From contig NZ_CP012602.1 of assembly GCF_001278805.1 (NCBI RefSeq), positions 1,580,001-1,644,000 on the forward strand: DNA of 64,000 nt. Direction: 5' to 3'. The first letter of the stretch is position 1; every line of letters begins with the position of its first letter. The notes under the pieces were generated by a model. It was given only the letters and a program-made list of their open reading frames with translations, was not told the origin of the DNA and did no database searches. Shown piece by piece: positions 4,382 through 60,010 of the stretch. Origin of the DNA: Bacillus sp. FJAT-18017 (GTDB lineage: Bacteria > Bacillota > Bacilli > Bacillales > Cytobacillaceae). The position numbers and the translations under genes are program-made.

Positions 4382-4456
4382 TCCGCAGTAGCTCAGTGGT
4401 AGAGCAATCGGCTGTTAACCGATCGGTCGTAGGTTCGAGTCCTACCTGCGGAGCCA
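4382..4456 (+). tRNA. tRNA-Asn(GTT)
   Basis: Cloverleaf with anticodon loop ctgttaa (GTT) and encoded CCA. Confidence 0.97.
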
Positions 4457-43247: not shown

Positions 43248-43576
43248 GATGAAGGATGGCTGGCACGATTTAAATGACTGTTGCCGTCTTCATAGGCTTG
43301 ATGAAGGATGGTAAGCCTTGATTTTAAGGACTGTTTCCGTCTTCATAAGCTCGATGAAGGATGGTAAGCCTTGATTTTAAGGACTGTTCCCGTCTTCATA
43401 AGCTCGATGAAGGATGGTAAGGCCCTATTTAAAGGACTGTTCCCGTCTTCATAAGCTCGATGAAGGATGGTAAGCCCTTATTTAAAGGTCTGTTCCCCTC
43501 TTCATAAACCCAATAAAGGAAGGATAGCCATTGGTTTTTGGCTAATTTCCGTCTTTATTAGTAGATTAAAGGAAAC
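43248..43576 (+). repeat. tandem array A, 52-53 bp period, about 6 units
   Basis: Units begin at gatgaagg at 43248, 43300, 43353, 43406 and 43459, with diverged units at 43512 and 43564 (periods 52, 53, 53, 53, 53, 52). The middle units are nearly identical. At each junction cttcat-aagctcg-atgaag forms a hairpin, and cctt...aagg forms another inside the unit. The array lies between ytpA and ytpB, both on the plus strand. It has no coding frame: the period is not a multiple of three. Confidence 0.93.
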
Positions 43577-43634
43577 ACTAGAATCCAGCTTACTTTTTTA
43601 AAAAAATGTGCAAATACAAGTAGGTGATTTAGAA

Positions 43635-44705
43635 TTGATTATTCCAGCAAAACCAGTCAGCCTGATGGCTCTAAGTTATAGAAAGATATTCCCTGCTGTT
43701 AAGGAAGAATTGGGTTATTGGAAACAGCGGGCAGAAGCAATTCCGAATCATGAGCTCCGTAATCAGGCAATTGCAAGCATCAACACCAAAACGTTTCATT
43801 GCGAGGGCGGTTCCATCATTGCTTTAATAGCAAAAAACGAGTATAGAAAGGCAATTAAATTTATTGTGGCCTACCAAACCATCAGTGATTACCTGGATAA
43901 CCTTTGTGATCGCAGTACCTCACTTGACCCCGATGATTTTGCCGCCCTCCACGATGCTATGTTTGATGCCCTCTTGCCTGGGCCAAGCCTTGGTGATTAT
44001 TATAGCAAAAGGAAAGACAAGGATGATGGTGGTTATTTAGCCGATCTCGTTGGCACGTGTAAACAAGTCCTTCAATCTGTAAGCAGTTATCCTATTATCC
44101 AGGATCATCTTCTCGATCTTTGTGGCTATTACTGTGAACTTCAGGTCCACAAACACGTCCACCCCGATGAAAGGGAAGGACGGCTGAAGGAATGGTTTAG
44201 CCGCCATAAAAAAAGAATGCCTGAGATGGATTGGTATGAATTTTCTGCTTGTTCCGGCTCGACGCTGGGTGTTTTTTGCCTCGTTTCCTATGCGATAGGA
44301 AGTCCAATGGGGGAGGAGAATGCCAAGAAAGTAGTTAATGGTTATTTTCCCTATATCCAAGGGCTCCATATTCTATTGGATTATTTTATTGATCAAGATG
44401 AGGACAGGCTTGGCGGAGACTTGAATTTTTGTTTTTATTATCGAAATCAGGAAGTCCTGTTTAATCGATTGCTCCACTTTATGGAAGAAGCTGATCGCCA
44501 TACAGAAGGGCTTCCACATCAGCATTTCCATATGATGATCAATCGAGGGCTTTTGGGATTATATTTGTCAGACAGTAAGGTGCAAAGCCAAGAGAGTGTC
44601 AGGAAGCTTGCTAAAAAAATTATAAAAGCGGGCGGCCCAGTAAGTAAATTCTTTTATATGAACGGACTGGCATACAGGTTTTTTCAAAAGGCTCGTCTAA
44701 ACTAA
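43635..44705 (+). CDS. ytpB: tetraprenyl-beta-curcumene synthase YtpB (DUF2600)
   Basis: The 356-residue soluble terpene synthase of the YtpB family cyclises tetraprenyl diphosphate to tetraprenyl-beta-curcumene, a precursor of sesquarterpenes in Bacillus. Family blocks are TKTFHCEGGSI (about 52), VAYQTISDYLDNLCDRST (about 80-97, the Asp-rich metal site), ACSGSTLGVFCL and GLHILLDYFIDQDEDRLGGDLNFCFYY (about 240-266). I prefer TTG 43635 because taggtg lies 8 nt upstream; GTG 43608 is in frame but has no site. Confidence 0.88.
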   Translation: MIIPAKPVSLMALSYRKIFPAVKEELGYWKQRAEAIPNHELRNQAIASINTKTFHCEGGSIIALIAKNEYRKAIKFIVAYQTISDYLDNLCDRSTSLDPDDFAALHDAMFDALLPGPSLGDYYSKRKDKDDGGYLADLVGTCKQVLQSVSSYPIIQDHLLDLCGYYCELQVHKHVHPDEREGRLKEWFSRHKKRMPEMDWYEFSACSGSTLGVFCLVSYAIGSPMGEENAKKVVNGYFPYIQGLHILLDYFIDQDEDRLGGDLNFCFYYRNQEVLFNRLLHFMEEADRHTEGLPHQHFHMMINRGLLGLYLSDSKVQSQESVRKLAKKIIKAGGPVSKFFYMNGLAYRFFQKARLN

Positions 44706-44776
44706 AGTTGCTGTGCGGCCTGTAATACAGGAAACGTTCCATTTCAACCTCTGTATAAGACGAAATGAAAAATTGG

Positions 44777-44975
44777 ATTGGTAACATTTCTAGCTCTACG
44801 ACAGCCAAAATATAATCAACGCCTGATTGGTAACATTTGAAGCTTTTCGATGGGCTAAAATGTAACCAACAAGCCTGATTGGTAACATTTGAAGCTTTTC
44901 TATAGGCTAAAATGTAACCAATAAGCCGTATTGGAAACATTTCAAGCTCCGAAGCCAGTCGAAATGTAACCCATA
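44777..44975 (+). repeat. tandem array B, 49-52 bp period, 4 units
   Basis: Units start at attgg at 44777, 44826, 44878 and 44930 (periods 49, 52, 52). Each carries acattt, gaagct (less clear in unit 1), agg and aaatgt within 31 nt, so acattt and aaatgt can close a hairpin. Units 2 and 3 are nearly identical. It lies between the convergent ytpB and ytqB. The 106-codon minus-strand open frame across it is an artefact. Confidence 0.9.
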
Positions 44976-45041
44976 AGCTTGCTCTGGGCCGTTGCCAGGC
45001 AATTTTTCCAGTTCGGTGTCAAACCAAGTTAAATTAACACG

Positions 45042-45072
45042 AAAAGGCATTCGCATCAGCGAATGCCTTTTC
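45042..45072 (-). terminator. terminator overlapping the ytqB stop codon
   Basis: On the minus strand the stem aaaaggcattcgc/gcgaatgcctttt has a 4-nt loop. The TGA stop (tca at 45056-45058) sits in the loop and stem, so translation ends inside the hairpin. Confidence 0.88.
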
Positions 45073-45640
45073 TCTTTTCAATGGCTACAATAAAGGGAGG
45101 ATTGTTTTTCTGATTGATGAAACAGTATTGCAGGACATGGGCCTGTTTTTGGTCGAGCCCACCAGCAAATTTAAGTAAACCGTCACGTTCTTCCTCGCCC
45201 CCATCATGTCCATGATAGACGACAAGAACGATAATTCCTCCGGGTTTAAGCATTGCAAATAGCTGATCAACAGCCGAAATAGTTGTCCCTGGTTTGGTTA
45301 TTATACTTTTGTCGCTGCCCGGAAGGTAACCAAGATTAAAAATGGCCGCGTGTATCTCGCCATGAAAACTCGCAGGAATACACGAAGATACATGCTCATG
45401 GCCTGTTTGGAACAGCTTTACCCTATCAGCTATCCCGCTTTGTTCAAGCCGGGCAGAGGTAGAGCTAATTGCTTCAGGCTGAATATCGAAAGAGAAAACA
45501 GTACCGGTTTCTCCAACAAGATTGGCCAGGAACAGGGTATCATGTCCGTTTCCCATCGTTGCATCGACCGCGCTGCCGCCTTCCTCAACGGCTTTTTGTA
45601 ATAGGCCTCTTGCGAAAGGGAGTATTCCATCAAGCTTCAT
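45056..45640 (-). CDS. mnmM: tRNA mnm5(s2)U methyltransferase MnmM (YtqB)
   Basis: The 194-residue SAM methyltransferase has motif I DATMGNGHDTLFLA (about 26-39), FSFDIQ (about 50) and NLGYLPGSDKSI (about 102-113), characteristic of YtqB. YtqB proteins were recently assigned as MnmM, which methylates nm5(s2)U34 to mnm5(s2)U34 in Gram-positive tRNAs. Start 45640 (MKLDGIL) gives a correct spacing to aaaaagg; the ATG at 45649 is too close. It is co-transcribed with ytqA 16 nt upstream. Confidence 0.88.
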   Translation of the reverse strand: MKLDGILPFARGLLQKAVEEGGSAVDATMGNGHDTLFLANLVGETGTVFSFDIQPEAISSTSARLEQSGIADRVKLFQTGHEHVSSCIPASFHGEIHAAIFNLGYLPGSDKSIITKPGTTISAVDQLFAMLKPGGIIVLVVYHGHDGGEEERDGLLKFAGGLDQKQAHVLQYCFINQKNNPPFIVAIEKRKGIR

Positions 45641-45656
45641 AGTGAACATCCTTTTT

Positions 45657-46634
45657 TCATATCGAAACTTCCACCTTTTTGTAAAACTTTCCCTGCCAAC
45701 TGTTACGGCGCAGCAGTTCAGCGTCGATTGCGTTTAAGACTTCCCACTTATTTACACTCCACATTGGACCGATCATGAGATTTATTGGTCCGTCACCGGT
45801 TATCCGATGGATAATCATTTCAGGCGGCAGTACCTCAAGCTGATCACAGACAAGGTTGATGTACTCGTCAAAGGACAAAAACTCAAGCATGCCTTTTTCA
45901 TATTGTTTCACCATAGGTGTTCCTTTGAGAAGGTGAAGAAGATGGATTTTTATTCCTTGTACATCTAGTTTTGCAACCTCTAGAGCCGTTTCCATCATCA
46001 TATCGGTTGTTTCAAGTGGCAGGCCGTTAATAATATGGGTACAGATTCGGATTCCATGTTTTCTAAGTTTTTCTACACCTTTTACATAACAGTCAAAGTC
46101 ATGAGCCCTGTTCACAATTTGAGCAGTCTTCTCATGTATAGTCTGCAGGCCAAGTTCAACCCAGAGGTAGGTCCGTTCATTTAACTCGGCAAGATACTCG
46201 ACAACGTCATCAGGCAGGCAATCCGGCCGGGTTGCAATTGAAAGCCCAACTACGCCCTCTTTATTAAGCACAGTTTCAAACTTTTCCCGGAGCTCGGAAA
46301 CTGGAGCATGCGTATTTGTAAATGCCTGAAAATAGGCCATGTATTTGCCATCTTTCCATTTTGAATGCATCTTTGCCTTTATTTCATTGAATTGAACCTC
46401 AAGCTCATCGGTGCGCCTTCCTGCAAAATCCCCGGAACCTGCTGCACTGCAAAATGTACAGCCGCCATGGGCAACCGTGCCGTCACGGTTCGGGCAATCG
46501 AAGCCGCCATCCAGGGCAATCTTGAATACTTTATGGCCGAACTGGCTGCGCAAGTGATAATTCCAGGAATGGTACCTTTTATGGTCTAGTGCATATGGGA
46601 AAGGGTTTAAATGTTTCAATTGGGGACACCCCAT
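45657..46634 (-). CDS. ytqA: radical SAM protein YtqA (TIGR01212 family)
   Basis: The 325-residue radical SAM enzyme has Cys in DCPNRDGTVAHGGCTFC (about 46-62), an unusual spacing typical of this family, followed by SAAGSGDFAGRR. B. subtilis YtqA has been proposed as MnmL, converting cmnm5U34 toward nm5U34 before MnmM methylates it; the ytqA-ytqB pair fits that, but I recall this assignment less firmly. ATG 46634 lacks a clear site. TTG at 46619, preceded by ggggtg, is a real alternative. Confidence 0.85.
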   Translation of the reverse strand: MGCPQLKHLNPFPYALDHKRYHSWNYHLRSQFGHKVFKIALDGGFDCPNRDGTVAHGGCTFCSAAGSGDFAGRRTDELEVQFNEIKAKMHSKWKDGKYMAYFQAFTNTHAPVSELREKFETVLNKEGVVGLSIATRPDCLPDDVVEYLAELNERTYLWVELGLQTIHEKTAQIVNRAHDFDCYVKGVEKLRKHGIRICTHIINGLPLETTDMMMETALEVAKLDVQGIKIHLLHLLKGTPMVKQYEKGMLEFLSFDEYINLVCDQLEVLPPEMIIHRITGDGPINLMIGPMWSVNKWEVLNAIDAELLRRNSWQGKFYKKVEVSI

Positions 46635-46825
46635 TTATTCATTAGTTTTGCCAGAGATTATGACATAAAATGAATTTTACCATGAAAGTGTACGTTGAGC
46701 CATTTCATTTCTTCCCAATAATATCGAGTGATAGTTAACGCTGTAGTGAACAAAATAAGAAGGAAACTGCTTTACGCAGGTTCCGGTCCAAGGTAAGGAC
46801 TGATAAATCAGTAGGGGGGAATCCA

Positions 46826-47089
46826 ATGGCAACCCGCCAATCAATTGAAGACTACATCCATAGATGCCAGGAAGCGATTGAGTTTGCGCAGGATCAGTAT
46901 AACCATACTGCAAGGCAGGAGCATTATAACGCAGAGGGTTATACCCAAGCGTTGCAGACACTCGAGGATGCTTATAATGAGATGGCTGTCCTTGCCATGA
47001 GTGCGAACTCGCAGCAGCGCGAAAGGCTGAACAGGATGAGGCTTCAGCTTCAGCAAGTCCAGAACGATCTAATTCTGCAGCGCTACTAG
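46826..47089 (+). CDS. ytzC: YtzC family protein (DUF2524)
   Basis: The 87-residue, entirely helical and charged protein contains IEDYIHRCQEAIEFAQDQY and a Gln/Arg-rich C-terminal helix. This fits the YtzC (DUF2524) family of Bacillales, function unknown. The ATG follows tagggggga. A 55-codon gene follows after 13 nt, probably in the same transcript. Confidence 0.8.
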   Translation: MATRQSIEDYIHRCQEAIEFAQDQYNHTARQEHYNAEGYTQALQTLEDAYNEMAVLAMSANSQQRERLNRMRLQLQQVQNDLILQRY

Positions 47090-47102
47090 GGAGGCTAACT
47101 GA

Positions 47103-47270
47103 ATGAAAAAACGTTCGAAACAAAATAACCCTGAGCAAAAAACGCGTAATGGCTATAATAGCCAGGACGTAGAGGTAGGCACTGATCTTAACCTGATTGA
47201 CAGGGCAAAGGAAGCGTATGAAAAGAAAGGCGGACAGCCGGTTAAATCAAAAATGCATGTTGAAAATTAA
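47103..47270 (+). CDS. small hydrophilic protein (55 aa), unrecognised
   Basis: The ATG at 47103 follows agggaggc, 13 nt after ytzC, and the frame ends at 47270 just before a strong terminator. The 55-residue product is Lys/Asn/Gln-rich with an acidic centre (DVEVGTDLNLIDRAKEAYEKKGG) and no hydrophobic segment. I do not recognise a family; the composition resembles minor small spore proteins, but no GPR cleavage motif is seen. Position, ribosome site and terminator make it a likely gene. Confidence 0.65.
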   Translation: MKKRSKQNNPEQKTRNGYNSQDVEVGTDLNLIDRAKEAYEKKGGQPVKSKMHVEN

Positions 47271-47283
47271 CCGTGTTTTAGTA

Positions 47284-47318
47284 AAGGCAGGAACCTAAAA
47301 TTGGTTCCTGCCTTTTTA
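47284..47318 (+). terminator. terminator after ytzC and the 55-aa gene
   Basis: The stem aaaggcaggaacc/ggttcctgccttt is followed by T residues. Confidence 0.92.
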
Positions 47319-47505
47319 TATTTTGGCTGTATTAGTTTAATTAGCCTATATTTTAAAAAGCTTGTGAAGGAAGTTCATAAATTCTTCATATTTTCTTCAC
47401 AGCTTTCACAAAAATAAAAATATCCTATTTCTGCGGAAATTACGGAATTATCGGTTGAAACCATTAGAGAGGCGTTCACAATTCGGTAAGAACTCGGAAA
47501 AATTT

Positions 47506-47521
47506 TGTGATTTAGGTCACA
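47506..47521 (+). promoter_or_regulatory. FNR-type binding site upstream of the nrf operon
   Basis: The sequence tgtga-tttagg-tcaca is a perfect match to the Bacillus Fnr/Crp-type consensus TGTGA-N6-TCACA. A taaata -10 candidate at 47545-47550 would place transcription start near 47556, about 42 nt from the box centre, the classic position for activation under anoxia. Confidence 0.85.
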
Positions 47522-47633
47522 GAATGGCATTCTTATCCATGGTTTAAATAAGATATCAACTTGAATGTTTTCTTACATGCGTAGGCAAAAAAAATATTAG
47601 CGTAAAGCAAGCCCATGGAAAGGAAGTGGCAAG

Positions 47634-48587
47634 ATGGGCAAGAAATTAGCAAGCATACTCATCTGTTTTATTTTAATGTTGCCGGGAGCGGCTTTTGCAG
47701 AAGAAAAGAATGAAAATGTTCTTAAGCTTGAAGAACTGACAGTCCAAGTTCTCCCTGAGTTTGCAAAACATCCTGAGGATAAGGAAACGGCTCAGCCCCC
47801 TTTGTTGATTGGTTACCAGGGCAGCCTGATTAATTCATCGGATAAGGCTCAAAAGGGGAAAATTGAGATTCCGCTGCCAGTAGAAGAAAAGAATTTCCGG
47901 ATTGGCTTTGTAGCGGATTATGCCAGTGACCTGTCTCAAATGTTCGAAATTGAATATGAGCTGGATAAAGAAAAAGGGACGATAGCCTGGGAAACGAGCA
48001 GGGAGATTGAACCAAACGAACAATATAAATTCATTATTGAATTTTATACAGATGCTATAAAAAAAGACAAAGAGTCAAAATCTCTTAACTATACCTTCAC
48101 AAGCTTTACAGATATTACAATGTTCAATTTGGCTGTCGTGGAACCAATGGAATCTTCAAAGGTAAAGCTTGACCCTGTTCCAACTGAAACGCCGCATGGT
48201 GACACATACGGGTTGACTAAGCATATCTACCAAGTTAAATCGATGAAGCCAGGCCAGGAGTTCAATGTCAAACTTGCCTACGACCGCAATGAAACGAAAA
48301 CAACAAATGAACTGATGGAATCGAAAGTCGGTAAACAATCCCCGGCGAAAGCCATCAAGACGGATAAAGTTCCGCTTGGCCTTACAATCGCAGGTATTTC
48401 CGCAGCGAGTATCCTTGCTGCAGGATTGTTGCTTCTATTTTTTAAAAGGCGCCAGAAAGCTCTGCCTGAAGCTGTGATTGAAGCCGATGTATCCGGGTTT
48501 AAGAAAGCTCAGCTTCGCAAAATGCTGATTGATGGCTCGATTACTGAAGATGAATACAACGAATTGCAAAAGAAATTAAAGAGTTAG
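47634..48587 (+). CDS. membrane-anchored extracytoplasmic protein, first gene of the nrf operon
   Basis: The 317-residue protein has signal peptide MGKKLASILICFILMLPGAAFA, an extracytoplasmic beta-rich domain (about 25-240), one C-terminal membrane segment (about 246-268) and a short cytoplasmic tail (GFKKAQLRKMLIDGSITEDEYNELQKKL) that resembles a SHOCT-like motif. It has no haem CxxC. One HxxxY (HGDTY, about 195-199) is present, the motif type used by CcmE to hold haem, but a chance match is likely. I recognise no named family. Its place directly before a CcmF-like gene suggests a role in cytochrome c maturation. Confidence 0.75.
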   Translation: MGKKLASILICFILMLPGAAFAEEKNENVLKLEELTVQVLPEFAKHPEDKETAQPPLLIGYQGSLINSSDKAQKGKIEIPLPVEEKNFRIGFVADYASDLSQMFEIEYELDKEKGTIAWETSREIEPNEQYKFIIEFYTDAIKKDKESKSLNYTFTSFTDITMFNLAVVEPMESSKVKLDPVPTETPHGDTYGLTKHIYQVKSMKPGQEFNVKLAYDRNETKTTNELMESKVGKQSPAKAIKTDKVPLGLTIAGISAASILAAGLLLLFFKRRQKALPEAVIEADVSGFKKAQLRKMLIDGSITEDEYNELQKKLKS

Positions 48588-48609
48588 AGGCAGCGGGGAG
48601 GGCGGCAGC

Positions 48610-50592
48610 ATGTATGTAGTCGGAAATTTATCGTTAGTGCTTGGTATCATGCTTTCCGCCTATACCCTTACCGCGACAGTTTTTGGAATCAGGAAGCGGA
48701 GCACCCAATGGCTGGATAGTGCAAAGGGCGGTGTGCTCGGTATTCTTGTTTCGGTCCTGGCAGCATCTGCTTTCCTGATTTACTTCCTGGCTACAGGCCA
48801 TTATGAATTCACGTATGTGGCTTCCTATACAAATGATTCACTGCCGCTTATTTATAAAATGACTGCCTTTTGGGCTGGCAACGCCGGATCGCTTCTTCTT
48901 TGGACGGCGCTGCTGGCTATCTATACAGCTGTTGTCGCATTATCAACAGGCAGAAACAATCCATACAAACCTTACGCACTCGCGGTTCTCGCAATGAACT
49001 TGTTGTTTTTCTTCATTGTTATGCTGGTTCTGGCAAATCCGTTTGAGATATCGGAAACAGTGCCTGAGGATGGCAACGGACTAAATCCAATGCTTCAAAA
49101 TCCGGGAATGGTTCTTCATCCGATCACACTTTATCTTGGCTATGTTGGGCTCGCAGTTCCCTTTGCCTATGCAATGGCATCCCTCATGTTGAAGAACATG
49201 GACTCGTCCTGGCTTAGGCTGACCCGGAGATGGACACTGACTGCCTGGCTGTTCCTGACAGCCGGCAACCTGATTGGAGCCTGGTGGGCATATGTTGAGC
49301 TTGGCTGGGGCGGGTATTGGGCATGGGACCCGGTTGAAAACGCTTCTTTCATGCCGTGGCTGACTGTTTCAGCATTGCTTCATTCAGTGATGATTCAGGA
49401 ACGCAAAAATATGCTGAGGAAATGGAACTTGATTCTTGTCATCGTCTCATATGGTCTGACTTTATTTGGAACGTTCCTTGTACGGAGCGGCATCCTGACG
49501 AGTGTACACGCATTTGCGGATAGCAGCCTTGGAACTTATTTCTTTATATTCCTATCCTTCATGGTTCTATTTGCAGCCTACCTGGTTGTTTCGAGGTATG
49601 GGCTCATCCAGGCAAAGAGTGTTCCCGTAACAGCCATTTTTTCGAAGGAAAGCAGTTTCCTGCTTAACAACTATATCCTGCTGGCTGCCGCCTTCGCGGT
49701 TTTCTGGGGAACAATTTTTCCGCTCTTATCAGAAACGTTCATTGGAACAAAGATTAATACAGGTGCACCATATTTCAACAAGGTAATGGCACCAATCCTG
49801 CTTGGGCTCATCCTGCTGATGGCGGCCTGCCCGGTCATTCCCTGGCAAAAAGCAAGCCCTGCACGCTTTCTTAGGCAGATTCGCTGGCCGCTGGCTGCCG
49901 CAACAGTATTTGCAGTACTGCTGATTATTAACGGTGTTGAAGGTGCTTTTGCCATTATCGGTATATCAGCCTGCATGTTCATGCTTTCAACTCATGTCGC
50001 GGAAATAGCCAATGGTATAAAAGCCCGACGGAAGGCAACTTCTGAGAATTTTGTCCTTGCTGCATTAAAGCTTTTTAAGAAAAACAGCCGCAGGTACGGA
50101 GGCTATATCGTCCATATTGGCATTGGTGTGCTGGCTGTCGGGGTGATTAGCTCACAGGCCTATCCTCTGGAAGTCATTAAAACAGTGAATCGAGGAGAAA
50201 GCATCAAAATTGGCGGATACGAACTCACCTTCAAAAGCTTCCAGGAAATCGAAAAAAGCGACCGTGATATTTTGTACGCTGAAATCGCAGTTATCCGCGA
50301 TGGAAGAGAGCTTGATTCGGTTTATCCAGAAAAAATTTACTACGATAACTGGGCAGAGCCTTCCACTGAAGTAGCTGTACAGTCACATTGGAATGAGGAC
50401 TTGTATGTCGTTCTCAGTTCATGGGAAACCAAGAATAAAATCACAATCCTGGCCCGGGTGAATCCATTTATTAGCTGGATTTGGGCAGGCGGTTACATCA
50501 TGCTTGCCGGGATTATAATAGCATTGTTTGGCGGCAGGCGGATGGCAGGCCAATCAATTGTTCAGTTTATCACAGAAAGGCGGGCATCCTGA
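48610..50592 (+). CDS. CcmF/NrfE-family haem lyase subunit
   Basis: The 660-residue polytopic protein of the haem-handling CcmF/CcsA superfamily has at least 13 membrane segments. The tryptophan-rich WWD domain reads WGGYWAWDPVENASFMPW (about 236-253), and HxxxS-type histidines are nearby (LLHSV). It resembles CcmF and NrfE (about 650 residues) rather than CcsA/ResC, which are shorter. In enterobacteria NrfEFG attaches the special haem of NrfA; here the gene lies upstream of a CcmH-like, a CcmI-like and nrfHA, giving the same set. Its stop overlaps the next start by 1 nt. Confidence 0.92.
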   Translation: MYVVGNLSLVLGIMLSAYTLTATVFGIRKRSTQWLDSAKGGVLGILVSVLAASAFLIYFLATGHYEFTYVASYTNDSLPLIYKMTAFWAGNAGSLLLWTALLAIYTAVVALSTGRNNPYKPYALAVLAMNLLFFFIVMLVLANPFEISETVPEDGNGLNPMLQNPGMVLHPITLYLGYVGLAVPFAYAMASLMLKNMDSSWLRLTRRWTLTAWLFLTAGNLIGAWWAYVELGWGGYWAWDPVENASFMPWLTVSALLHSVMIQERKNMLRKWNLILVIVSYGLTLFGTFLVRSGILTSVHAFADSSLGTYFFIFLSFMVLFAAYLVVSRYGLIQAKSVPVTAIFSKESSFLLNNYILLAAAFAVFWGTIFPLLSETFIGTKINTGAPYFNKVMAPILLGLILLMAACPVIPWQKASPARFLRQIRWPLAAATVFAVLLIINGVEGAFAIIGISACMFMLSTHVAEIANGIKARRKATSENFVLAALKLFKKNSRRYGGYIVHIGIGVLAVGVISSQAYPLEVIKTVNRGESIKIGGYELTFKSFQEIEKSDRDILYAEIAVIRDGRELDSVYPEKIYYDNWAEPSTEVAVQSHWNEDLYVVLSSWETKNKITILARVNPFISWIWAGGYIMLAGIIIALFGGRRMAGQSIVQFITERRAS

Positions 50593-51083: not shown

Positions 51084-51108
51084 CAACAGTGAGGGAGGAT
51101 TGGTGTAG

Positions 51109-51426: not shown

Positions 51427-51532
51427 AGGCGGCATCACTAAAACAGGCTCTGCCTGAGAAAGCAATACTCAAACTTGGTTAGAACACATAGGTGTTTTAA
51501 TAGATTAAACATTTACCTGGGGAGGTGAAAGA

Positions 51533-52048: not shown

Positions 52049-52050
52049 GA

Positions 52051-53493
52051 ATGAGTAAGTTCCGCTTAGGAGCGTACCTGATGCTTCTGGCTGTCATTCT
52101 AATCGTGTCCGGCTGCAGTTCCCAGGAACAAACGGCTGGCGCAAAGGCCAAGACGACAGGTCTCTCGAAGGATGAAATATCAAATGAAGCATTTAAGGAT
52201 ATGTTTCCGCTTCAATATAATAGCTATATGAAGAATGAAAAAATGGAAGATACAAAATACAGCGGCTCTGTAAAGCGTTCCAAGTACGACGCTGATAAAG
52301 AACCATATCTTCCAATCTTATTCAATGGTTATGGCTTTGCGACTGAATACAATGAAGATCGCGGCCACGTGTATGCGCTCGAAGATGTCAAAAATGTAGC
52401 TCGTATCACTGACAAGTCAGTTGGATCCTGTTACACATGTAAATCAACTGCTGTTCCACAAATGATCGAGGAAATGGGCGACGATTACTGGGGCGGCAAT
52501 TTTAAAACTGAAATTTTCCCTAAAGGGGAAGCCATGGGCCATTCGCCAATCGGCTGCTCAGACTGCCATGACCCGCAAACAATGGACCTGCGCATTACAC
52601 GACCAAGCTTTGTAAAAGGTATGGAAGCACAAGGAATTGATATTTCAAAGGCAACAAAGAATGAGCTTAGAAGCTATGTGTGTGCACAGTGTCACGTTGA
52701 ATATCATTTTGCAGCTTCCAACAGTGAAGTAACGTTCCCTTGGGACAATGGCTTCAAGCCTGAAGATATGTATGAATACTATGAAACAACTGCAAAAGAA
52801 AACGGCTTTGAAAAAGACTGGGTACACAATATTTCCGGAACACCAATGATTAAGGCTCAGCACCCTGACTTTGAAACTTTTGTTGAAGGTACGCACGGCA
52901 AAGCTAACGTATCCTGTGCAGACTGCCATATGCCATACGAGCGTGTAGACGGAAAACGTAAAATCTCTTCCCACTGGTGGACTTCACCACTTAAAACTAT
53001 GGACACATCCTGCGGCCAATGCCACGGCGACCGTGACCTAGATAAGCTGAAAGGCCGTGTTACCGAGATTCAGGATACACATATGGAGCAGCTTCATGTT
53101 GCTGAAGATGTTTCTCTGTCTGCCCACTACTATGTGAACAAAATGATTACTTCCAAGGTGCCTGCTGAGAAAATTAAGGCTGCACAAGAACATATCCGTA
53201 AAGGTCAATGGTTCTGGGATATCGTTGCTGCCGAAAGCTCTGCCGGTTTCCACAATCCACAGGGCTCGATGGATTCACTTGCTATTTCACTTGAAGAATC
53301 CAATAAGGCTATCATGATCGCAACTGAAGAGCTTGTTAAGAAAGGCGTCAATATCGATAAGCTGAAAGAGGATATTGAAAAAGCCAAGAAAGCTGTAACA
53401 AGCGAAAAAGACAACAAGAAGAAGAAGGACCACGCAATCAACGAAGAGTTCCCTCCACAGCAGCCTGTGGTTCCGGCAACTCCTAAGAAGTAA
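52051..53493 (+). CDS. nrfA: ammonia-forming cytochrome c nitrite reductase NrfA
   Basis: NrfA reduces nitrite to ammonium by six electrons. The 480-residue protein is a lipoprotein here (lipobox IVSGC, Cys about 22), as expected for a Gram-positive without periplasm. It has the catalytic CYTCK haem motif (about 127-131) and four CxxCH motifs at about 169, 211, 288 and 320, giving five haems. The Lys-ligated haem needs a dedicated lyase, which the upstream CcmF/H/I-like genes could supply. The C-terminal tail is Lys-rich (KKKKDH). A terminator follows. Confidence 0.97.
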   Translation: MSKFRLGAYLMLLAVILIVSGCSSQEQTAGAKAKTTGLSKDEISNEAFKDMFPLQYNSYMKNEKMEDTKYSGSVKRSKYDADKEPYLPILFNGYGFATEYNEDRGHVYALEDVKNVARITDKSVGSCYTCKSTAVPQMIEEMGDDYWGGNFKTEIFPKGEAMGHSPIGCSDCHDPQTMDLRITRPSFVKGMEAQGIDISKATKNELRSYVCAQCHVEYHFAASNSEVTFPWDNGFKPEDMYEYYETTAKENGFEKDWVHNISGTPMIKAQHPDFETFVEGTHGKANVSCADCHMPYERVDGKRKISSHWWTSPLKTMDTSCGQCHGDRDLDKLKGRVTEIQDTHMEQLHVAEDVSLSAHYYVNKMITSKVPAEKIKAAQEHIRKGQWFWDIVAAESSAGFHNPQGSMDSLAISLEESNKAIMIATEELVKKGVNIDKLKEDIEKAKKAVTSEKDNKKKKDHAINEEFPPQQPVVPATPKK

Positions 53494-53507
53494 AGCAATT
53501 AATACAG

Positions 53508-53542
53508 AAAGCACTGTTCCGTATTGCGGAGCGGTGCTTTTC
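53508..53542 (+). terminator. terminator of the nrf operon
   Basis: The imperfect stem aaagcactgttccg/cggagcggtgcttt is followed by ttttc. Confidence 0.8.
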
Positions 53543-53604
53543 GATTTGCAAAGGTAATTTGGGCAATGATCTGTATCTTGTCAATTTTATATAGAGGCTC
53601 TTGG

Positions 53605-53647
53605 TTGGTAACATTTTGCCGACTTTAAGGTACTGAAACGTTACCAA
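53605..53647 (+). repeat. single hairpin element related to array B
   Basis: Perfect 8-bp arms ttggtaac (53605-53612) and gttaccaa (53640-53647) enclose 27 nt. The left arm continues attttg, so it reads ttggtaacatttt like array B units. It may be a solitary or decayed unit. Confidence 0.65.
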
Positions 53648-53911
53648 TAAAGATTATTAATTAAACAGTATCGCCTGTATCATTGTTGACCCGACCGTAA
53701 TAGAAGTCCATTGTGACAACAAGAGCAATGAAACATTTATAAGGTTTGCTTTTTTTGTTGCTGGCCGGTCAGAAAAATCCATTGCATGCTATCACCAAAA
53801 GGAATAGAATAACTCTTGGTGCTTTTTTATTGGGTTCTCTAGTTTGGAAGTAATCTCACTATTTTTCCTAATCATTTGGAGCTGCACGTTTTCTATCCTA
53901 GGGGCATCGAA

Positions 53912-54118
53912 CCTTCTAGAAAAAGGTTTACTCGACGTAACTGATCCCATAAAGTATTGGTTCGTCTAGAAAAATAGGTTTACTCGACGTAACTGATCCC
54001 GTAAAGTATTGATTCGTCTAGAAAAATAGGTTTACTTGACGTAACTAGTCCGGTGATGTGTCGATGCGTCTAGAAAGATAGGTTTACTCGACGTATCTGG
54101 TCCTTTTACCCAACAAAG
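53912..54118 (+). repeat. tandem array C, 50-52 bp period, 4 units
   Basis: Copies of tctaga...aggttta.t.gacgta start at 53915, 53965, 54017 and 54069 (periods 50, 52, 52). Each unit has gtaaa/tttac complements in the order tttac (unit) and gtaaa(gt), and gacg/cgtc arms. It lies between nrfA and the MFS gene, ending 41 nt before that start codon. No start codon plus site yields a repeat peptide. Confidence 0.9.
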
Positions 54119-54159
54119 TGTCGAGAAAAAGTATTAACTGCAAAGGAGTTTCATTCATT

Positions 54160-55347
54160 ATGCCACGTTCGTTATGGCTCTTAATTATCGGGATGGTTGT
54201 CAATGTCATTGGCTCCTCGTTTTTATGGCCGTTAAATTCTATATATATTCATGATTACCTCGGTAAGTCGCTGTCGACCGCCGGGTTCGTACTGATGCTT
54301 AATTCAGCGGCAAGTGTCGCTGGCAATCTGGTTGGAGGCACCCTATTCGACCGCATCGGGGGCTATAAATCTATTTTACTTGGAATCGGCATATCTTTGA
54401 TGGCAGTGGCCGGGCTGACGCTCTGGCATGACTGGCCGCAATATGTCATTTTCCTGACGATTGCCGGATTTGGCTCCGGAATTATTTTTCCTGCAATGTA
54501 TGCGATGTCCGGGTCGGTTTGGCCAGACGGGGGCAGAAGGGCTTTTAATGCAATCTACGTTGCCCAAAACCTTGGTGTAGCAGTGGGTTCTGCATTAGGG
54601 GGAATCGTAGCAGGTATTTCCTTTGAACTAATATTCCTGGCAAACCTAATCATGTATGTTGTGTTTTTCGTCATTGCCGTTTTTGGCTACAAGGGAATCA
54701 AAGTGGCAAGCGGAGCCCAGTCTTCCGTCCTACAGGAAAATTCTCCGAGATTCAAAGGGAACAAAATCCTTCAGGCGTTATTGATTGTTTGCATTGGATA
54801 CCTGCTTTGCTGGGTCGCTTATGTACAGTGGCAGACAACGATTGCTTCCTATACCCAGGAAATTAATGTGTCTCTCACCCAGTACAGCCTTTTATGGACT
54901 GTGAATGGTGCGCTAATTGTTCTTGGACAGCCGTTCTTAAACCGTTTCCTAAAATGGTTCAATCGTTCACTTAAAGCTCAAATGGTGCTTGGAATGGTGA
55001 TTTTTGCTGTATCTTTCATTGTAGCGGCATACTCTAACAGCTTTTCCGGCTTTATGGCCGGGATGATCATCCTGACTGCCGGGGAAATGCTTATTTGGCC
55101 GGCAGTGCCAGCAATTGCCAGTGACCTCGCACCTAAAGGACGAGAGGGCTTCTACCAAGGAATTGTTAACAGCACAGCGACTGGCGGCAGAATGATTGGT
55201 CCATTGCTCGGCGGAATTCTTGTTGACTTGTATGGAATGTCAATGCTATTCATCATCCTGATTGGGCTTTTCGCTGTTTCAATTGTCACAACACTTATAT
55301 ACGACAGAGGAATTAAAGAATCAAAACAAATAGTAAAAGTGTCTTAA
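54160..55347 (+). CDS. MFS transporter (YttB-like)
   Basis: The 395-residue major facilitator has 12 predicted helices. Motif A-like sequence GGTLFDRIGGYKSI (about 60-73) lies between helices 2 and 3, with a matching loop near 220. It resembles B. subtilis YttB and other drug or metabolite exporters. The ATG at 54160 follows aaaggag; the frame is open 14 codons further, into the tandem array. The substrate is unknown. A terminator follows. Confidence 0.85.
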   Translation: MPRSLWLLIIGMVVNVIGSSFLWPLNSIYIHDYLGKSLSTAGFVLMLNSAASVAGNLVGGTLFDRIGGYKSILLGIGISLMAVAGLTLWHDWPQYVIFLTIAGFGSGIIFPAMYAMSGSVWPDGGRRAFNAIYVAQNLGVAVGSALGGIVAGISFELIFLANLIMYVVFFVIAVFGYKGIKVASGAQSSVLQENSPRFKGNKILQALLIVCIGYLLCWVAYVQWQTTIASYTQEINVSLTQYSLLWTVNGALIVLGQPFLNRFLKWFNRSLKAQMVLGMVIFAVSFIVAAYSNSFSGFMAGMIILTAGEMLIWPAVPAIASDLAPKGREGFYQGIVNSTATGGRMIGPLLGGILVDLYGMSMLFIILIGLFAVSIVTTLIYDRGIKESKQIVKVS

Positions 55348-55356
55348 TACTATCCA

Positions 55357-55389
55357 GCCCTGCCGGCTTAGGCGGGGCATTTTTTTTGA
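55357..55389 (+). terminator. terminator after the MFS gene
   Basis: The stem gccctgcc/ggcggggc with a short loop is followed by a, then T8. Confidence 0.88.
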
Positions 55390-55579
55390 AATTCTCTATT
55401 TTTGAATGAATTGAAACAAATTCGGTAATAACTGTAAATGAATCAGATGAAGTAAAGAAACGGTCGGATTCTCATGAAATATTGCAAATATCCTGGCTTA
55501 GAGCCCATTTTTCGACAGTTTGCTTGCATCCAGCAGAGATTTTATATAAAATAACACTATCTCAATCCCATATAAACAA

Positions 55580-55826
55580 CATGGCAGTGAGAAGGAGCAG
55601 TAGTGAAAGCGTCCCGCCTAGTAGAGAGCTGGCGGTTGGTGAAAGCCGGCCGGGACATTCATGAACTCGCCTTTGAGCCGCAGGCGTGAAGTAACAGTAA
55701 TGTCTGCCGTTTTCCGCGTTAAGGATGAATGAAGCGAGTGTTTGCACACTAATGTGGGTGGTACCGCGGGAAGATACATATATCCTCTCGTCCCTTTTGT
55801 AGGGATGTGGGGATTTTTTGTTTTTA
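55580..55826 (+). promoter_or_regulatory. T-box leader (leucine) of leuS
   Basis: The canonical T-box aatgtgggtggtaccgcggg lies at 55751-55770. Stem I shows the AGAGA-type segment (gtagagagctgg) and a distal ggcggttggtgaaagccggcc loop, with the specifier codon CTC (Leu) at 55676-55678. The terminator is atcctctcgtccc (55782 on) with gggatgtggggat and T6. Uncharged tRNA-Leu should pair and allow leuS transcription. A promoter ttgctt-17 nt-tatata lies at 55520-55548. Confidence 0.95.
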
Positions 55827-55954
55827 AAAAGAAAAAGCCGCCGAAGCATCTAGTTGGCACTCCAGCTTGATGTGCGGTGGGAAGCAGATCCTTTTTAACA
55901 AAAAGGAAATCGGCATGAAGCCGAAGAAAAATAAGTAATTAGGGAGGAATCCAA

Positions 55955-58366
55955 ATGAACTTCAACCATAGGGAAATAGAAAAAAAGTGGCAAACAATTT
56001 GGGAAACAGAAAAAACATTCAAAACCAACGAAGAAAAAGGCAAGCCGAAGTTCTATGCACTAGATATGTTCCCGTACCCATCCGGAGCCGGACTGCACGT
56101 GGGCCATCCTGAGGGCTATACCGCTACTGATATACTTTCGCGAATGAAACGGATGCAGGGCTACAATGTGCTTCATCCAATGGGCTGGGACGCTTTCGGC
56201 CTTCCTGCAGAGCAATACGCATTGGATACAGGAAACGATCCTGCGGAATTTACAAAGAAAAATATTGATACGTTCCGCCGCCAAATCAAATCACTTGGGT
56301 TCTCCTACGATTGGGATCGTGAATTCAGCACGACCGATCCTGACTATTATAAGTGGACGCAATGGATATTTTTGAAGCTTTATGAAAAGGGCCTTGCCTA
56401 TGTTGATGAAGTTCCGGTTAACTGGTGTCCGGCACTTGGAACTGTACTTGCGAATGAGGAAGTAATTGACGGCAAGAGCGAACGCGGAGGGCATCCTGTT
56501 GTGCGCCGCCCGATGAGGCAGTGGGTGCTTCGTATTACTGAATATGCAGATCGTTTGCTTGAAGACCTTGAAGAGCTGGATTGGCCTGAAAGCCTGAAGG
56601 ATATGCAGCGCAATTGGATCGGCCGTTCCGAGGGTGCGGAGGTTACTTTCAATATTAAAGGGCATGATGGAACATTTAAGGTTTTCACAACCCGTCCGGA
56701 TACGCTTTTCGGTGCAACTTATGCAGTACTTGCTCCTGAACATGCGTTAGTTGAAGAAATTACAACTCCTGATCAAAAAGAGGCTGTTCAGGCGTACATC
56801 GATAAGGTAAAGGCAAAGAGCGACCTTGAGCGGACTGATCTTGCGAAAGAAAAGACCGGTGTCTTCACAGGTGCATACGCCATCAACCCTGTTAATGATG
56901 AAGAAATGCCTATCTGGATTGCGGATTATGTCCTTGCAAGCTACGGTACTGGAGCCATCATGGCGGTACCTGCGCACGATGAGCGTGACTATGAGTTTGC
57001 AAAACAGTTCGGCCTTCCGATTGTTGAGGTTGTTGCCGGCGGAGATGTTGATAAAGAAGCATACACAGGCGATGGCGAGCATGTAAATTCCGGCTTCCTG
57101 AATGGCTTGAACAAACCTGACGCCATCCGTGACATGATTGCATGGCTTGAGGAAAAGGGTATTGGCACGAAGAAGGTAACGTACCGCCTTCGTGATTGGC
57201 TGTTCAGCCGTCAGCGTTATTGGGGTGAACCGATTCCAATTATCCATTGGGAAGATGGCACAAGCACTGCTGTTCCTGAAGACCAGCTGCCGCTTGTTTT
57301 ACCGAAAACAACTGATATTAAGCCTTCAGGCACAGGTGAATCACCACTTGCCAATATTACAGACTGGGTGAATGTCGTCGATCCTGAAACTGGCAAGAAG
57401 GGCCGTCGTGAAACGAATACGATGCCGCAATGGGGCGGAAGCTGCTGGTACTTCCTGCGCTACATTGATCCGAAGAATGATAAGCAGCTTGCAGATCCTG
57501 AAAAGTTAAAAGAATGGCTTCCGGTTGACATTTATATTGGCGGCGCGGAGCATGCGGTGCTTCACCTGCTATATGCCCGCTTCTGGCATAAGTTCCTGTA
57601 TGATATCGGCGTTGTTCCGACTAAAGAGCCATTCCAAAAGCTATTTAACCAGGGTATGATCCTTGGTGAAAACAATGAGAAGATGAGTAAATCAAAAGGG
57701 AATGTCGTAAACCCTGACCATATTGTTGAGACTCATGGAGCAGACACATTGCGCCTTTATGAAATGTTCATGGGACCGCTTGATGCATCTGTTGCTTGGT
57801 CAACAAATGGCCTCGATGGTGCCCGCAGGTTCCTGGACCGTATTTGGCGCCTGTTTATTGAGACTGATGGCTCTGTAAGCAAGAAAATCCAGAAAGGTGC
57901 TTCGGCTGACAATCTTGAGCGGGTTTATCACCAGACAGTGAAAAAGGTTACCGAAGACTACGAAGGGCTGCGCTTTAACACTGGAATCTCCCAGCTGATG
58001 GTCTTCATCAATGAGGCCTATAAGACTGACGTGCTTCCGAAGGAGTTTGTGGAAGGGTTCGTAAAACTTCTTTCTCCTGTAGCTCCACACGTTGCAGAAG
58101 AGCTTTGGGAAAAGCTTGGCCATACTAATACGATTTCGTACGCTCAATGGCCAACCTTCGATGAATCCAAGCTTGTTGAAAATGAAGTTGAAATCGTCGT
58201 CCAAATCAACGGCAAGGTTAAAAAGAAGGTTATGGTTCCTGCTGATGCAACCAGGGAAGCGATGGAAGAGCTGGCGAAGAAAGAAATCAGCTCCGAACTT
58301 GAAGGTAAAACTATCCGCAAGGTAATCGCAGTACCTGGCAAGCTTGTTAACATTGTAGCGAATTAA
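55955..58366 (+). CDS. leuS: leucyl-tRNA synthetase
   Basis: This class I synthetase charges tRNA-Leu. The 803 residues match Bacillus LeuS. Catalytic motifs are HIGH-like HVGH (about 48-51) and KMSKS (about 576). The CP1 editing domain spans roughly 220-420, with [11 protein letters not shown] (about 249-259) and [18 protein letters not shown] (about 328-345). The ATG follows agggagga. It is controlled by the leucine T-box upstream. A hairpin terminator precedes the rhodanese gene. Confidence 0.98.
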
Positions 58367-58441
58367 TTTTCACGGTTTAGAAGCATAATAATGGCTGTGA
58401 AGGCTGGATTATGGGAAACTGTAATGGGAAAAAAAGTTTAG

Positions 58442-58472
58442 GCATCCTCCGGAAAACCGGGGGATGTTTTTC
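58442..58472 (+). terminator. terminator after leuS
   Basis: The stem gcatcctccgg/ccgggggatg with loop aaaa is followed by T5. Confidence 0.88.
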
Positions 58473-58492
58473 CGAAAAGGGGTGTAGGTTGA

Positions 58493-58807
58493 ATGGAAGA
58501 AATTAAAACAATCTCTCCAGAAGAATTGGAAAAAAAGCTTGAAGCTGGGGAAAAGCTTGAAGTAATTGATGTGAGGGAAGACGAGGAAGTTGCCTACGGG
58601 ATGATTCCTGGCGCAAAGCATATTAAGATGGGCGATATTCCCGAAAACATGGATAAACTCGATAAAGATAAGGAATACATCTTCGTTTGCCGTTCCGGCC
58701 GCAGAAGCCTAAATGTTTGCCATTACTTGCAGGACCAAGGGTATAAAGTGGTTAATATGGAAGGCGGCATGCTTAGCTGGGAAGGCGAAGTTGAGGCCAA
58801 TTTTTAA
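58493..58807 (+). CDS. ytwF: rhodanese-like sulfurtransferase (YtwF-like)
   Basis: The single-domain rhodanese of 104 residues has the active-site loop CRSGRRS (Cys about 64) in FVCRSGRRSLNVCHYL and the usual DVREDEEVAYGMIPGAKHI segment (about 26-44). It may carry persulfide sulfur or simply be a small sulfurtransferase; no partner gene is adjacent. It is preceded by the leuS terminator and gaaaaggggtg. The name follows the B. subtilis locus near leuS and is tentative. Confidence 0.85.
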   Translation: MEEIKTISPEELEKKLEAGEKLEVIDVREDEEVAYGMIPGAKHIKMGDIPENMDKLDKDKEYIFVCRSGRRSLNVCHYLQDQGYKVVNMEGGMLSWEGEVEANF

Positions 58808-58825
58808 AGGTCCCGCAAGAGGTTT

Positions 58826-58899
58826 GACCGATAAATTGTAGATTGGACCGATAAAAACTGGAATGGACCGATAAATATTGCGATTCGACCGATAAAACA
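58826..58899 (+). repeat. tandem array E, 20-21 bp period, 4 units
   Basis: The core gaccgataaa occurs at 58826, 58846, 58866 and 58887 (periods 20, 20, 21), with loosely conserved spacers. It lies between the convergent rhodanese and SASP genes. It is too short and AT-rich to be coding. Confidence 0.88.
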
Positions 58900-58931
58900 T
58901 TTTTTGTTCTTTTAAAAGAATAAATCCAGAA

Positions 58932-58971
58932 TAAAGAGTGCTCTTTCTAACTTGAGGAGCACTCTTTTTTT
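58932..58971. terminator. terminator between the rhodanese and SASP genes
   Basis: The stem aaagagtgctc/gagcactcttt has a loop of about 13 nt and a T7 run on the plus strand. Confidence 0.85.
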
Positions 58972-59012
58972 ACCTGGAATTATAGTTTTCGAATAGCACT
59001 TGGAGTACGTAT

Positions 59013-59267
59013 TTATTGCTTTTTCATATTCTCCATCGCCATCCGTACCATTTCCTTCACCATGCTGCCGCCTAGCCTTCCGCCAACTTTACCCGCATCC
59101 TGAGCAGCAATACGGCCATTGTAGCCATGTTCCAAATGAACACCGACTTCTTTTGCCGCTTCATACTTTGCATCCTCCGGCCTGTCAGCACCCACCACTT
59201 TTGCTTTTAATTGATCGAGCTCCTGTCTTGCTTCAGGAACCAAAATTTTATTTCGACGCCTGCTCAT
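59013..59267 (-). CDS. alpha/beta-type small acid-soluble spore protein
   Basis: The 84-residue DNA-binding spore protein has the conserved blocks NKILVPEARQELDQLK (about 5-20), GPR protease-type site KYEAAKEVGV (about 33-42) and NGRIAAQDAGKVGGRLGGSMVKEMVRMA (about 49-76). It saturates spore DNA and protects it from UV and heat. Start 59267 is preferred for the aaggagg just upstream; the longer frame to 59309 reads through that site. Which of the several SASPs it is cannot be decided here. Confidence 0.92.
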   Translation of the reverse strand: MSRRRNKILVPEARQELDQLKAKVVGADRPEDAKYEAAKEVGVHLEHGYNGRIAAQDAGKVGGRLGGSMVKEMVRMAMENMKKQ

Positions 59268-59377
59268 GTTTTCAGCCTCCTTGGGCTTATTTTGCTGCAA
59301 ACGATTCAAGCTTATCCAGATGACTTATAAAAAGGTTGAATTTTGGGAAAAATGAAAATAGTAAAGGAGGGAAGAGG

Positions 59378-59560
59378 ATGATTCAGGTTAAGCTTTTCGA
59401 TAAGGAGCATGAAGCAGATTTAGAAAAGGAGATGAACCTTTTCCTAAGGAATCTTGATGAAAAAAAGCTCTACGATATTAAATACAATGTGGCTGCTATG
59501 CATGAGGATGACGATGACCAAATTTATTGCTTTTCAGCTATGGTTATCTATAGAGCCTAG
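59378..59560 (+). CDS. small sporulation protein, Cse60-like (DUF2758)
   Basis: The 60-residue protein starts MIQVKLFDKEHEADLEKEMNLFL and ends YCFSAMVIYRA. It is acidic and helical at the N-terminus with a C-terminal beta strand. The length and pattern agree with what I recall of the Cse60 family, a sigma-E-dependent sporulation protein of B. subtilis; function unknown. ATG 59378 follows aaaggaggg; the frame is open 14 codons upstream. It is divergent from the SASP gene. Confidence 0.65.
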   Translation: MIQVKLFDKEHEADLEKEMNLFLRNLDEKKLYDIKYNVAAMHEDDDDQIYCFSAMVIYRA

Positions 59561-59696
59561 ATTAAGTAAGAAATTAATCAGAGAAGTATCAAAATAATAG
59601 GACACAATTGAAATGGTAGAAGATAGCGGACAAAATGCTAAAAAATCATACGGTTTCTACACAAAAAATAGGGAAAAATCTTTTGAAATTTTTTCG

Positions 59697-59980
59697 AGTA
59701 CATTTTGAGACTGTCGGGCAGGTAAAATGTCCTTGAAATTGGTTTTCAAGTACATATTGAAACTGTCTGACAGGTGAAATGTCCTTGAAATTGGCTTTCA
59801 AGTACATTTTGGAACAGCCGGATAGGTGAAATGTCCTTGAAATTGGTTTTCAAGTACATTTTGAAGCTGTCTTACAGGTGAAATGTCCTGGAAAGTAGTT
59901 TTCGAGTACAATTTGAAGTTGTCAGTCAGATGAAATGTCCATGAAAAGTTTACGAGTACAATTTGAAACCGAGAACAGTA
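59697..59980 (+). repeat. tandem array D, 52 bp period, about 6 units
   Basis: The core agtacat/agtacaa occurs at 59697, 59749, 59801, 59853, 59905 and 59955 (periods 52, 52, 52, 52, 50). Each full unit carries acattt, gaagct-like, agg and aaatgt within 31 nt, as in array B. Between the unit hairpins there is also cttgaaa/tttcaag with a 4-nt loop. It lies between the convergent Cse60-like gene and the flavoprotein gene. Confidence 0.93.
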
Positions 59981-60010
59981 CGAAATCAAAACCAAATATT
60001 CATAAAATAG

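What the first reader, a model, noticed from the sequence alone, without database searches (positions are those of the whole stretch)
43248..59980. Four different intergenic tandem arrays share a common period of about 52 bp
Arrays A (43.2 kb), B (44.8 kb), C (53.9 kb) and D (59.7 kb) are separate in sequence, yet all repeat at 49-53 bp, mostly 52 or 53, in 4-6 units. All lie downstream of genes or in convergent gaps, and all contain inverted repeats. B and D share one framework: acattt, gaagct, agg and aaatgt within the same 31-nt span. A constant length with drifting sequence (about five helical turns) suggests selection for spacing, for example phased binding of a protein or a chain of RNA hairpins, or a shared amplification mechanism. 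I know of no named Bacillus family that matches, but could not search. This is the strongest candidate for something undescribed.
Basis: partly seen in the sequence, partly recalled or inferred. Interest (0 to 1): 0.7.

Follow-up and report, generated by a model that had tools for sequence, protein, structure and literature searches.

The report
52-bp satellite arrays in Bacillus
The four repeat arrays belong to a known but unexplained class of bacterial satellite DNA whose units keep a length of about 52 base pairs while their sequence changes; the evidence here favours a role as DNA rather than as RNA hairpins, and one jumping gene of this genome was found only inside such arrays.

Summary
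Observation confirmed: arrays A-D have periods 53, 52, 52, 52. They belong to a genome-wide class: in 864 kb sampled, 27 of 44 arrays with period 30 or more have period 51-53 or twice that. Six of seven same-genus genomes sampled show such arrays (none in 20 kb of the seventh), several with unrelated sequences; four of six genera sampled elsewhere in the family do too. The class is in print: '52 nt tandem repeats' of Bacillus (Subirana & Messeguer 2021, PMC8161180), function unknown. New here: units carry imperfect inverted arms that are conserved but, in the best-sampled family, do not covary; stem mismatches show no RNA signature (G.T 107, A.C 107 cells; terminators 71 to 26); and a 1380-bp transposase-bearing element has five identical copies in the genome, all five inside such arrays, four within 1 bp of a dyad centre. 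Best reading: double-stranded DNA platforms of about five helical turns per unit, probably for phased protein binding (0.45). RNA hairpin chains are disfavoured. No binding protein was identified.

The parts
43248..43565 (.). Array A, family F5: five units of 52-53 bp and a degenerate sixth; arms CCGTCTTCAT / ATGAAGGA around a 7-nt loop
   Evidence: 20 + 38 matches by strand of its pattern in the genome, control 0; two units in the sister species EB01
44776..44975 (.). Array B, family F1: units of 49, 52, 52 bp and a degenerate fourth; arms TTGGTAACATTT / AAATGTAACCAA; convergent gap
53605..53647 (.). Lone F1 unit; EB01 has an array of about three units at this place
53913..54130 (.). Array C, family F6: units of 50, 52, 52, 52 bp; arms CGTCTAG / CTCGACG; just upstream of an MFS gene
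59683..59995 (.). Array D, family F3: units of 52, 52, 52, 52, 50 bp and a degenerate sixth; arms AAATGTCCTTGAA / TTCAAGTACATTT around a 7-nt loop; convergent gap
   Evidence: two units fewer in EB01

Best explanation
The arrays are members of the published class of 52-nt satellites of Bacillaceae (near certain; the confidence below is for the mechanism). Most likely mechanism: they act as double-stranded DNA. Each unit is about five helical turns long and carries a pair of inverted, similar but not identical, arms that are half-sites for one or more DNA-binding proteins; the constant length keeps successive sites in phase, so that proteins can line up along the array in intergenic, often convergent, gaps. 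Arrays grow and shrink by whole units; arm sequences drift and families rise and fall by lineage, while the length stays. Shown: constant length, arms more conserved than spacers, whole-unit copy-number change, no RNA signature, all five copies of one insertion element inside arrays. Inferred: that a protein binds, that it lines up along the array, and what the cell gains.
For: Period: 27 of 44 sampled arrays of period 30+ are 51-53 bp or doublets; 82 of 97 unit steps equal the mode of their array and 90 of 97 are 51-53; the same period with unrelated arms in other species. Arms: more alike between units than spacers in 29 of 34 arrays and in 11 of 15 with the dyad chosen on other units; in 86 F1 units each arm keeps its own sequence, with a fixed A.A mismatch in 60 and G.T in 48. 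Not RNA: G.T 107 against A.C 107, terminators 71 against 26; no covariation beyond shuffles. Recognised in trans: all five copies of one element sit in arrays of two families with different arms. Place: 12 of 33 arrays with both neighbours known are in convergent gaps against 57 of 382 gaps, p 0.005 (crude ORF calls, arrays of five genomes against gaps of one).
Against: No binding protein was found or searched for in a way that could find one. Different arms in one genome would need several proteins or a reader of something other than arm sequence. The substitution rate in arrays is not lower than in flanking non-coding DNA (141 of 1203 against 124 of 1769; 38 of 527 against 60 of 873 in the three one-to-one arrays). 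The gap-to-substitution ratio between adjacent units is not clearly lower than in flanks (66/487 against 23/124, p 0.26). Inverted arms beat shuffles in only 5 of 15 consensus units made here and 16 of 27 published ones, and loop sizes vary, so no single arm geometry holds for the class.
Confidence: 0.45

Rival explanations
1. Satellites without a host function. The length was inherited from an ancestral 52-bp repeat, or is set by the machinery that amplifies it; arms stay alike through recombination and palindrome-templated repair between copies; arrays persist because they sit in harmless gaps.
For: Whole-unit gain and loss between sister species; families expand and shrink by lineage: F6 has 10 + 5 matches by strand here and 46 + 36 in EB01; near-neutral substitution; no array found by TRF at the orthologous 20 kb of two related species; some families look related by descent.
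Against: Length holds at 51-53 over unrelated sequences and several genera; arms are more conserved than loops and spacers; no small indel in the three one-to-one orthologous arrays against 11 in their flanks.
Confidence: 0.3
2. Chains of RNA hairpins: transcribed arrays that fold into one stem-loop per unit and act as small RNA, sponge or 3'-end stabiliser.
For: The units fold; the class is transcribed in B. coagulans RNA-seq (passages of PMC8625621; also PMC8161180); one double compensatory change in an orthologous unit; cells with a change on both sides 9 against 5.0 in shuffles (15 of 500).
Against: G.T 107 equals A.C 107 over 41 arrays, by columns 16 against 12, while terminators in the same DNA give 71 against 26 (the stem criterion there is stricter). 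Covariation score and number of covarying pairs are at the shuffled level. No Rfam match. The within-array lean of cells (155 of 214, expected 142) is not seen by columns (24 of 28, expected 25).
Confidence: 0.1
3. Single-strand DNA hairpins worked on by a Y1 (HUH) transposase, as in REP/RAYT systems.
For: Imperfect palindromes with fixed mismatches; several families per genome; Y1 transposase hits in 8 of 8 genomes of the genus.
Against: Of five RAYT-like loci inspected, two (L188, L192) have their own CTAGT-type arrays of period 130 and two more (L190, L191) CTAGT-bearing inverted repeats; no 52-bp repeat family is listed in any of the five 2-kb stretches. G010 has a 103-bp array (2 x 51.5) but no Y1 hit.
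Confidence: 0.1

Closest known systems
52-nt tandem repeats (satellites) of Bacillus, Subirana & Messeguer 2021 (PMC8161180, main text seen in full; supplements not seen; their 2020 J Bacteriol paper is not held)
   Same: Constant unit of 51-53 nt, non-coding, variable sequence, several families per genome, species-specific, short signals and their reverse in one unit, arrays only partly conserved between strains
   Different: Nothing that separates these arrays from the class. Added here: arm anatomy, tests against RNA pairing, comparison with orthologues, insertion element targeting
sopC centromere of plasmid F: twelve 43-bp tandem repeats with 16-bp inverted repeats bound by ParB/SopB (one passage of PMC6238139)
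   Same: Tandem array of fixed period with an inverted repeat per unit
   Different: One locus on a plasmid and one sequence there; here dozens of chromosomal loci and at least eight families, and no known binder
REP/BIME palindromes and insertion elements that target them (passages of PMC1525189 and PMC3733652)
   Same: Intergenic palindromic repeats; some insertion elements have all copies in REPs (ISPsy8 5/5), an IS256-family case has 5/7
   Different: REPs are small palindromes tagged by GTAG or CGTC, with a RAYT partner in several genomes and no fixed 52-bp period; here the RAYT-like genes inspected lie beside another repeat family or none

Membership tests
52-nt satellites of Bacillus (Subirana & Messeguer) | Unit of 51-53 nt, not a multiple of three as a rule, non-coding | tested here: met
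   intergenic in the window
52-nt satellites of Bacillus (Subirana & Messeguer) | Several families per genome with one length and different sequence | tested here: met
   eight families named by eye in the 864-kb sample
52-nt satellites of Bacillus (Subirana & Messeguer) | Families specific to a species or close relatives | tested here: met
   F1 in 3 of 61 genomes, F2 in 3 of 21; F4 is wider, 8 of 21
52-nt satellites of Bacillus (Subirana & Messeguer) | Mostly 4-10 units, number not conserved between strains | tested here: met
   TRF copies 2.3-5.6 in most arrays, up to 9.8 as single units; 6 against 2 units for array A in EB01
RNA hairpin family | G.U pairs tolerated on the transcribed strand, stem covariation | tested here: not met
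RNA hairpin family | Match to an Rfam family at its gathering score | tested here: not met
REP/RAYT system | Repeat family found beside its own RAYT gene | tested here: not met
   five RAYT-like loci, no 52-bp repeat in their 2 kb
CRISPR array | Unrelated spacers between near-identical repeats | tested here: not met
   spacers of one array are on average 76% alike; cas genes were not searched for
sopC-like centromere | Tandem units each with an inverted repeat | tested here: met
sopC-like centromere | Cognate ParB-type protein that binds the unit | not tested
   no search for ParB paralogues was made; binding needs the bench

The most novel reading that the evidence does not exclude
The 52-bp satellites are a chromosomal nucleoprotein scaffold of Bacillaceae, read by its five-turn spacing rather than by one fixed sequence, and marked strongly enough in the cell that a transposase puts every copy of its element into it, at the dyad centre in one family and 6 bp from a dyad in another family of unrelated arms. 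The element would then be a natural probe of the bound state of the arrays.
Probability: 0.3. Interest if true: 0.78.

Novelty: new member of a known kind. Interest (0 to 1): 0.5.

Why it matters
A satellite class with constant length and free sequence has been in print since 2020 without a function. The tests here move it from 'RNA or DNA' towards DNA, give a unit anatomy that can be footprinted, and offer a handle: an insertion element found only in these arrays (5 of 5 copies), which makes the question of what marks an array directly testable.

Tried and rejected
RNA hairpin chain: mismatch and covariation tests went against it. A first version of the mismatch test (58 against 61) left out stem columns with under 40% Watson-Crick pairs and so dropped fixed wobbles; it was repeated on all stem columns.

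RAYT/REPIN link: RAYT-like genes were inspected and lie beside another repeat family or none. In one search the ORF picked automatically for L190 is not the transposase.

Arm geometry of two plus three helical turns: fits F1, F2, F3 and the TTAG/CCGAA family of G001 by eye, not F7 and F8, and fitted loops run from 3 to 13 nt; not claimed as general.

Indel suppression: mixed. Zero small indels in 527 aligned array positions against 11 in 873 for three one-to-one arrays, but 12 in 1203 against 23 in 1769 over all seven regions, and adjacent units do not differ clearly from flanks. Length itself is kept (arrays were found by regular period, which favours this). One search was invalid (arrays aligned to themselves) and is not used.

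Phages and plasmids: array B has no match in either collection at E 0.01.

Before, 3 of 86 units were dropped as lone chance hits outside arrays. In one search, 2 of the 17 arrays given had under four units and were skipped. In one search's tally one 106-bp array was dropped after reading its units.

Literature: nine searches. No paper on an insertion element that targets 52-nt satellites was seen in the listings; that is a statement on those two searches only.
Full report
OBSERVATION. Context: A lies between two + genes, B and D in convergent gaps, C just upstream of an MFS gene. No Rfam family matches them.

GENOME-WIDE PEAK. The pattern of array B's arms (GGTAACATTT-N19-AAATGTAACC, up to 3 mismatches) gives 46 + 46 matches by strand in the 5.27-Mb genome, 61 distinct places, against 1 + 0 for the reversed pattern; in that listing all 29 neighbours closer than 60 bp are exactly 52 bp apart (my count). 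In EB01 one pair is 103 bp apart, so there are exceptions. In 40 evenly spread stretches plus the window (864 kb) TRF gives 65 non-overlapping arrays of period 20 or more, 44 of period 30 or more. Of the 44, 22 have period 51-53 and five more (103, 103, 104, 104, 106) are doublets; a second 106-bp array is not of this kind. I sorted the units by eye into eight families: F1 (array B), F2, F3 (D), F4, F5 (A), F6 (C), F7, F8. Whole-genome matches: F2 58 places, F4 61 places, F5 20 + 38, F3 31 + 24 and F6 10 + 5 by strand; control 0 in this genome for each. F5 steps are 53 bp in most listed arrays.

RELATIVES. G001, without F1, has six arrays of 51-52 bp or multiples in 280 kb, with other sequences; G003, G004 and G006 have one, two and one in 20 kb each, G002 none in 20 kb; G007 has nine and G005 three in 220 kb each. 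In other genera of the family there is one each in G010 (20 kb), G016 (60 kb, 21 copies), G024 (200 kb) and G031 (200 kb), none in G013 (80 kb) and G030 (60 kb). Some families look related by descent: F7 here and a G001 family share GTGCCCGAAC and GGTAAC in the same places, and F4 resembles G001 arrays of 51 bp (by eye).

EVOLUTION. Against EB01 (92-94% identical in the two longest matches around the arrays) array A has six units against two, D two more than EB01, and the lone F1 unit faces about three. F1 arrays near 4426 and 1742 kb keep all three units; an F2 array is decayed in EB01. TRF lists no repeat of period above 12 in the orthologous 20 kb of G005 and G002. Over seven orthologous regions substitutions are 141 of 1203 in arrays and 124 of 1769 in flanking non-coding DNA, small indels 12 and 23; in the three one-to-one arrays 38 of 527 against 60 of 873, indels 0 against 11. 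In two of these, arms have 4 changes in 144 positions, loops and spacers 12 in 168. Within this genome 82 of 97 unit steps equal the mode of their array, yet the gap-to-substitution ratio between adjacent units is not clearly lower than in flanks (p 0.26). So length is kept; that indels are purged is shown only in part.

ANATOMY. In F1-F3 a unit reads [arm 12-13][loop 7-9][arm 12-13][spacer about 19]. Arms are more alike between units than spacers in 29 of 34 arrays (means 0.90 and 0.76) and in 11 of 15 when the dyad is chosen on the first two units and identity measured on the rest. In 86 F1 units the left arm is TTGGTAACRTTT while the right arm, read from the other strand, is TTGGTTACATTT: position 6 is A.A in 60, position 9 is G.T in 48, A.T in 28, A.C in 6. 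Covariation in 83 of them is at the level of shuffles (score 0.064 against 0.067; 3 pairs with double change against 2.6), with a small excess of doubly changed cells, 9 against 5.0 (15 of 500 shuffles). Inverted arms exceed shuffles in 16 of 27 published consensus units and in 5 of 15 made here, so they are frequent but not a universal feature by that test.

RNA OR DNA. If RNA hairpins were selected, G.T should exceed A.C on the transcribed strand. Over 41 arrays the cells are 107 and 107, the columns 16 and 12; cells lean to one kind within arrays (155 of 214, expected 142), columns do not (24 of 28, expected 25); since units of one array share ancestry the column count is the fairer one. 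Terminator hairpins in the same DNA, found with a stricter stem rule, give 71 and 26. Transcription of the class in B. coagulans (passages) does not decide the matter.

AN ELEMENT THAT USES THE ARRAYS. An F1 array at 1440 kb is split by an element absent at the same place in EB01. It is 1380 bp long with a Mutator-family transposase (PF00872; I call it IS256-type from memory of that domain). It has five full copies in this genome, all 100% identical, and none in G001-G007 apart from a 177-bp match of 71% in G001. All five lie in 52-bp arrays, four in F4 and one in F1, with 8-9 bp target duplications. The target centre is 0, 0, 1 and 0.5 bp from the best dyad within 8 bp in F4 and 6 bp in F1. 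Arrays make up 0.7% of the sample, or 4.3% of its gaps of 100 bp or more; five of five by chance is 1.8e-11 or 1.4e-7. Caution: the element was noticed because it splits arrays; four of the five places were known before the search and one, at 2126 kb, was found blind. That no copy lies elsewhere does not depend on this, but loss of insertions outside arrays could add to the effect. REP-targeting elements are known, one of them of the IS256 family with 5 of 7 copies (passages of PMC1525189).

WHAT IS KNOWN. Subirana & Messeguer 2021 (PMC8161180) report 1886 repeats of 51-53 nt among 4029 in 176 Bacillus genomes, with constant size and variable sequence, and propose proteins that polymerise on DNA, or small RNAs. 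The finding as worded belongs to that class.

VERDICT. A real, strong, genome-wide feature of a known but unexplained class. Added here: evidence for action as DNA, arms that look like half-sites, and the element that lands only in arrays. Interest 0.5; the open function carries most of it.

Noticed in passing
G000 793859, 1440070, 1681152, 2126050, 2229498 (loci L205, L204, L203, L202, L200): A 1380-bp element with a Mutator-family transposase has five identical copies, all inside 52-bp arrays, with 8-9 bp target duplications.
   Followed up: yes
L188:1351-1819 and L192:1180-1772; also L190, L191: RAYT-like Y1 transposase genes lie beside CTAGT-type palindromes, in two loci as arrays of period 130 (steps 42 and 88); similar CTAGT-bearing arrays of period 125-131 occur at L132:13500 and L133:2075.
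   Followed up: partly
L031:18081-18132, L015:5577-5625, L023:3191-3242: A 21-nt repeat family (TGTCCTG...CGGGAAA) recurs; periods 20-22 are the second peak in the TRF tally (17 of 65 arrays), matching the 20-21 nt class of PMC8161180.
   Followed up: no
window 58826-58896: A 20-bp tandem repeat (GACCGATAAATATTGGATTG, 3.5 copies) in the gap after a short + ORF (58493-58807) that resembles a rhodanese by eye.
   Followed up: no
G007 (EB01) whole genome, family F6: The family of array C has 10 + 5 matches by strand here but 46 + 36 in the sister species EB01: families expand by lineage.
   Followed up: no
L028:1-436: Another array, TRF period 97 with an inner repeat of about 32 bp (GGACCAGACACTAGAACTCCTGGTTCTGCAAA), not of the 52-bp class.
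   Followed up: no
window 37651-37768 and 55578-55798: SAM riboswitch, and a T-box leader upstream of a large ORF at 55955 that reads like leucyl-tRNA synthetase (gene name by eye).
   Followed up: no
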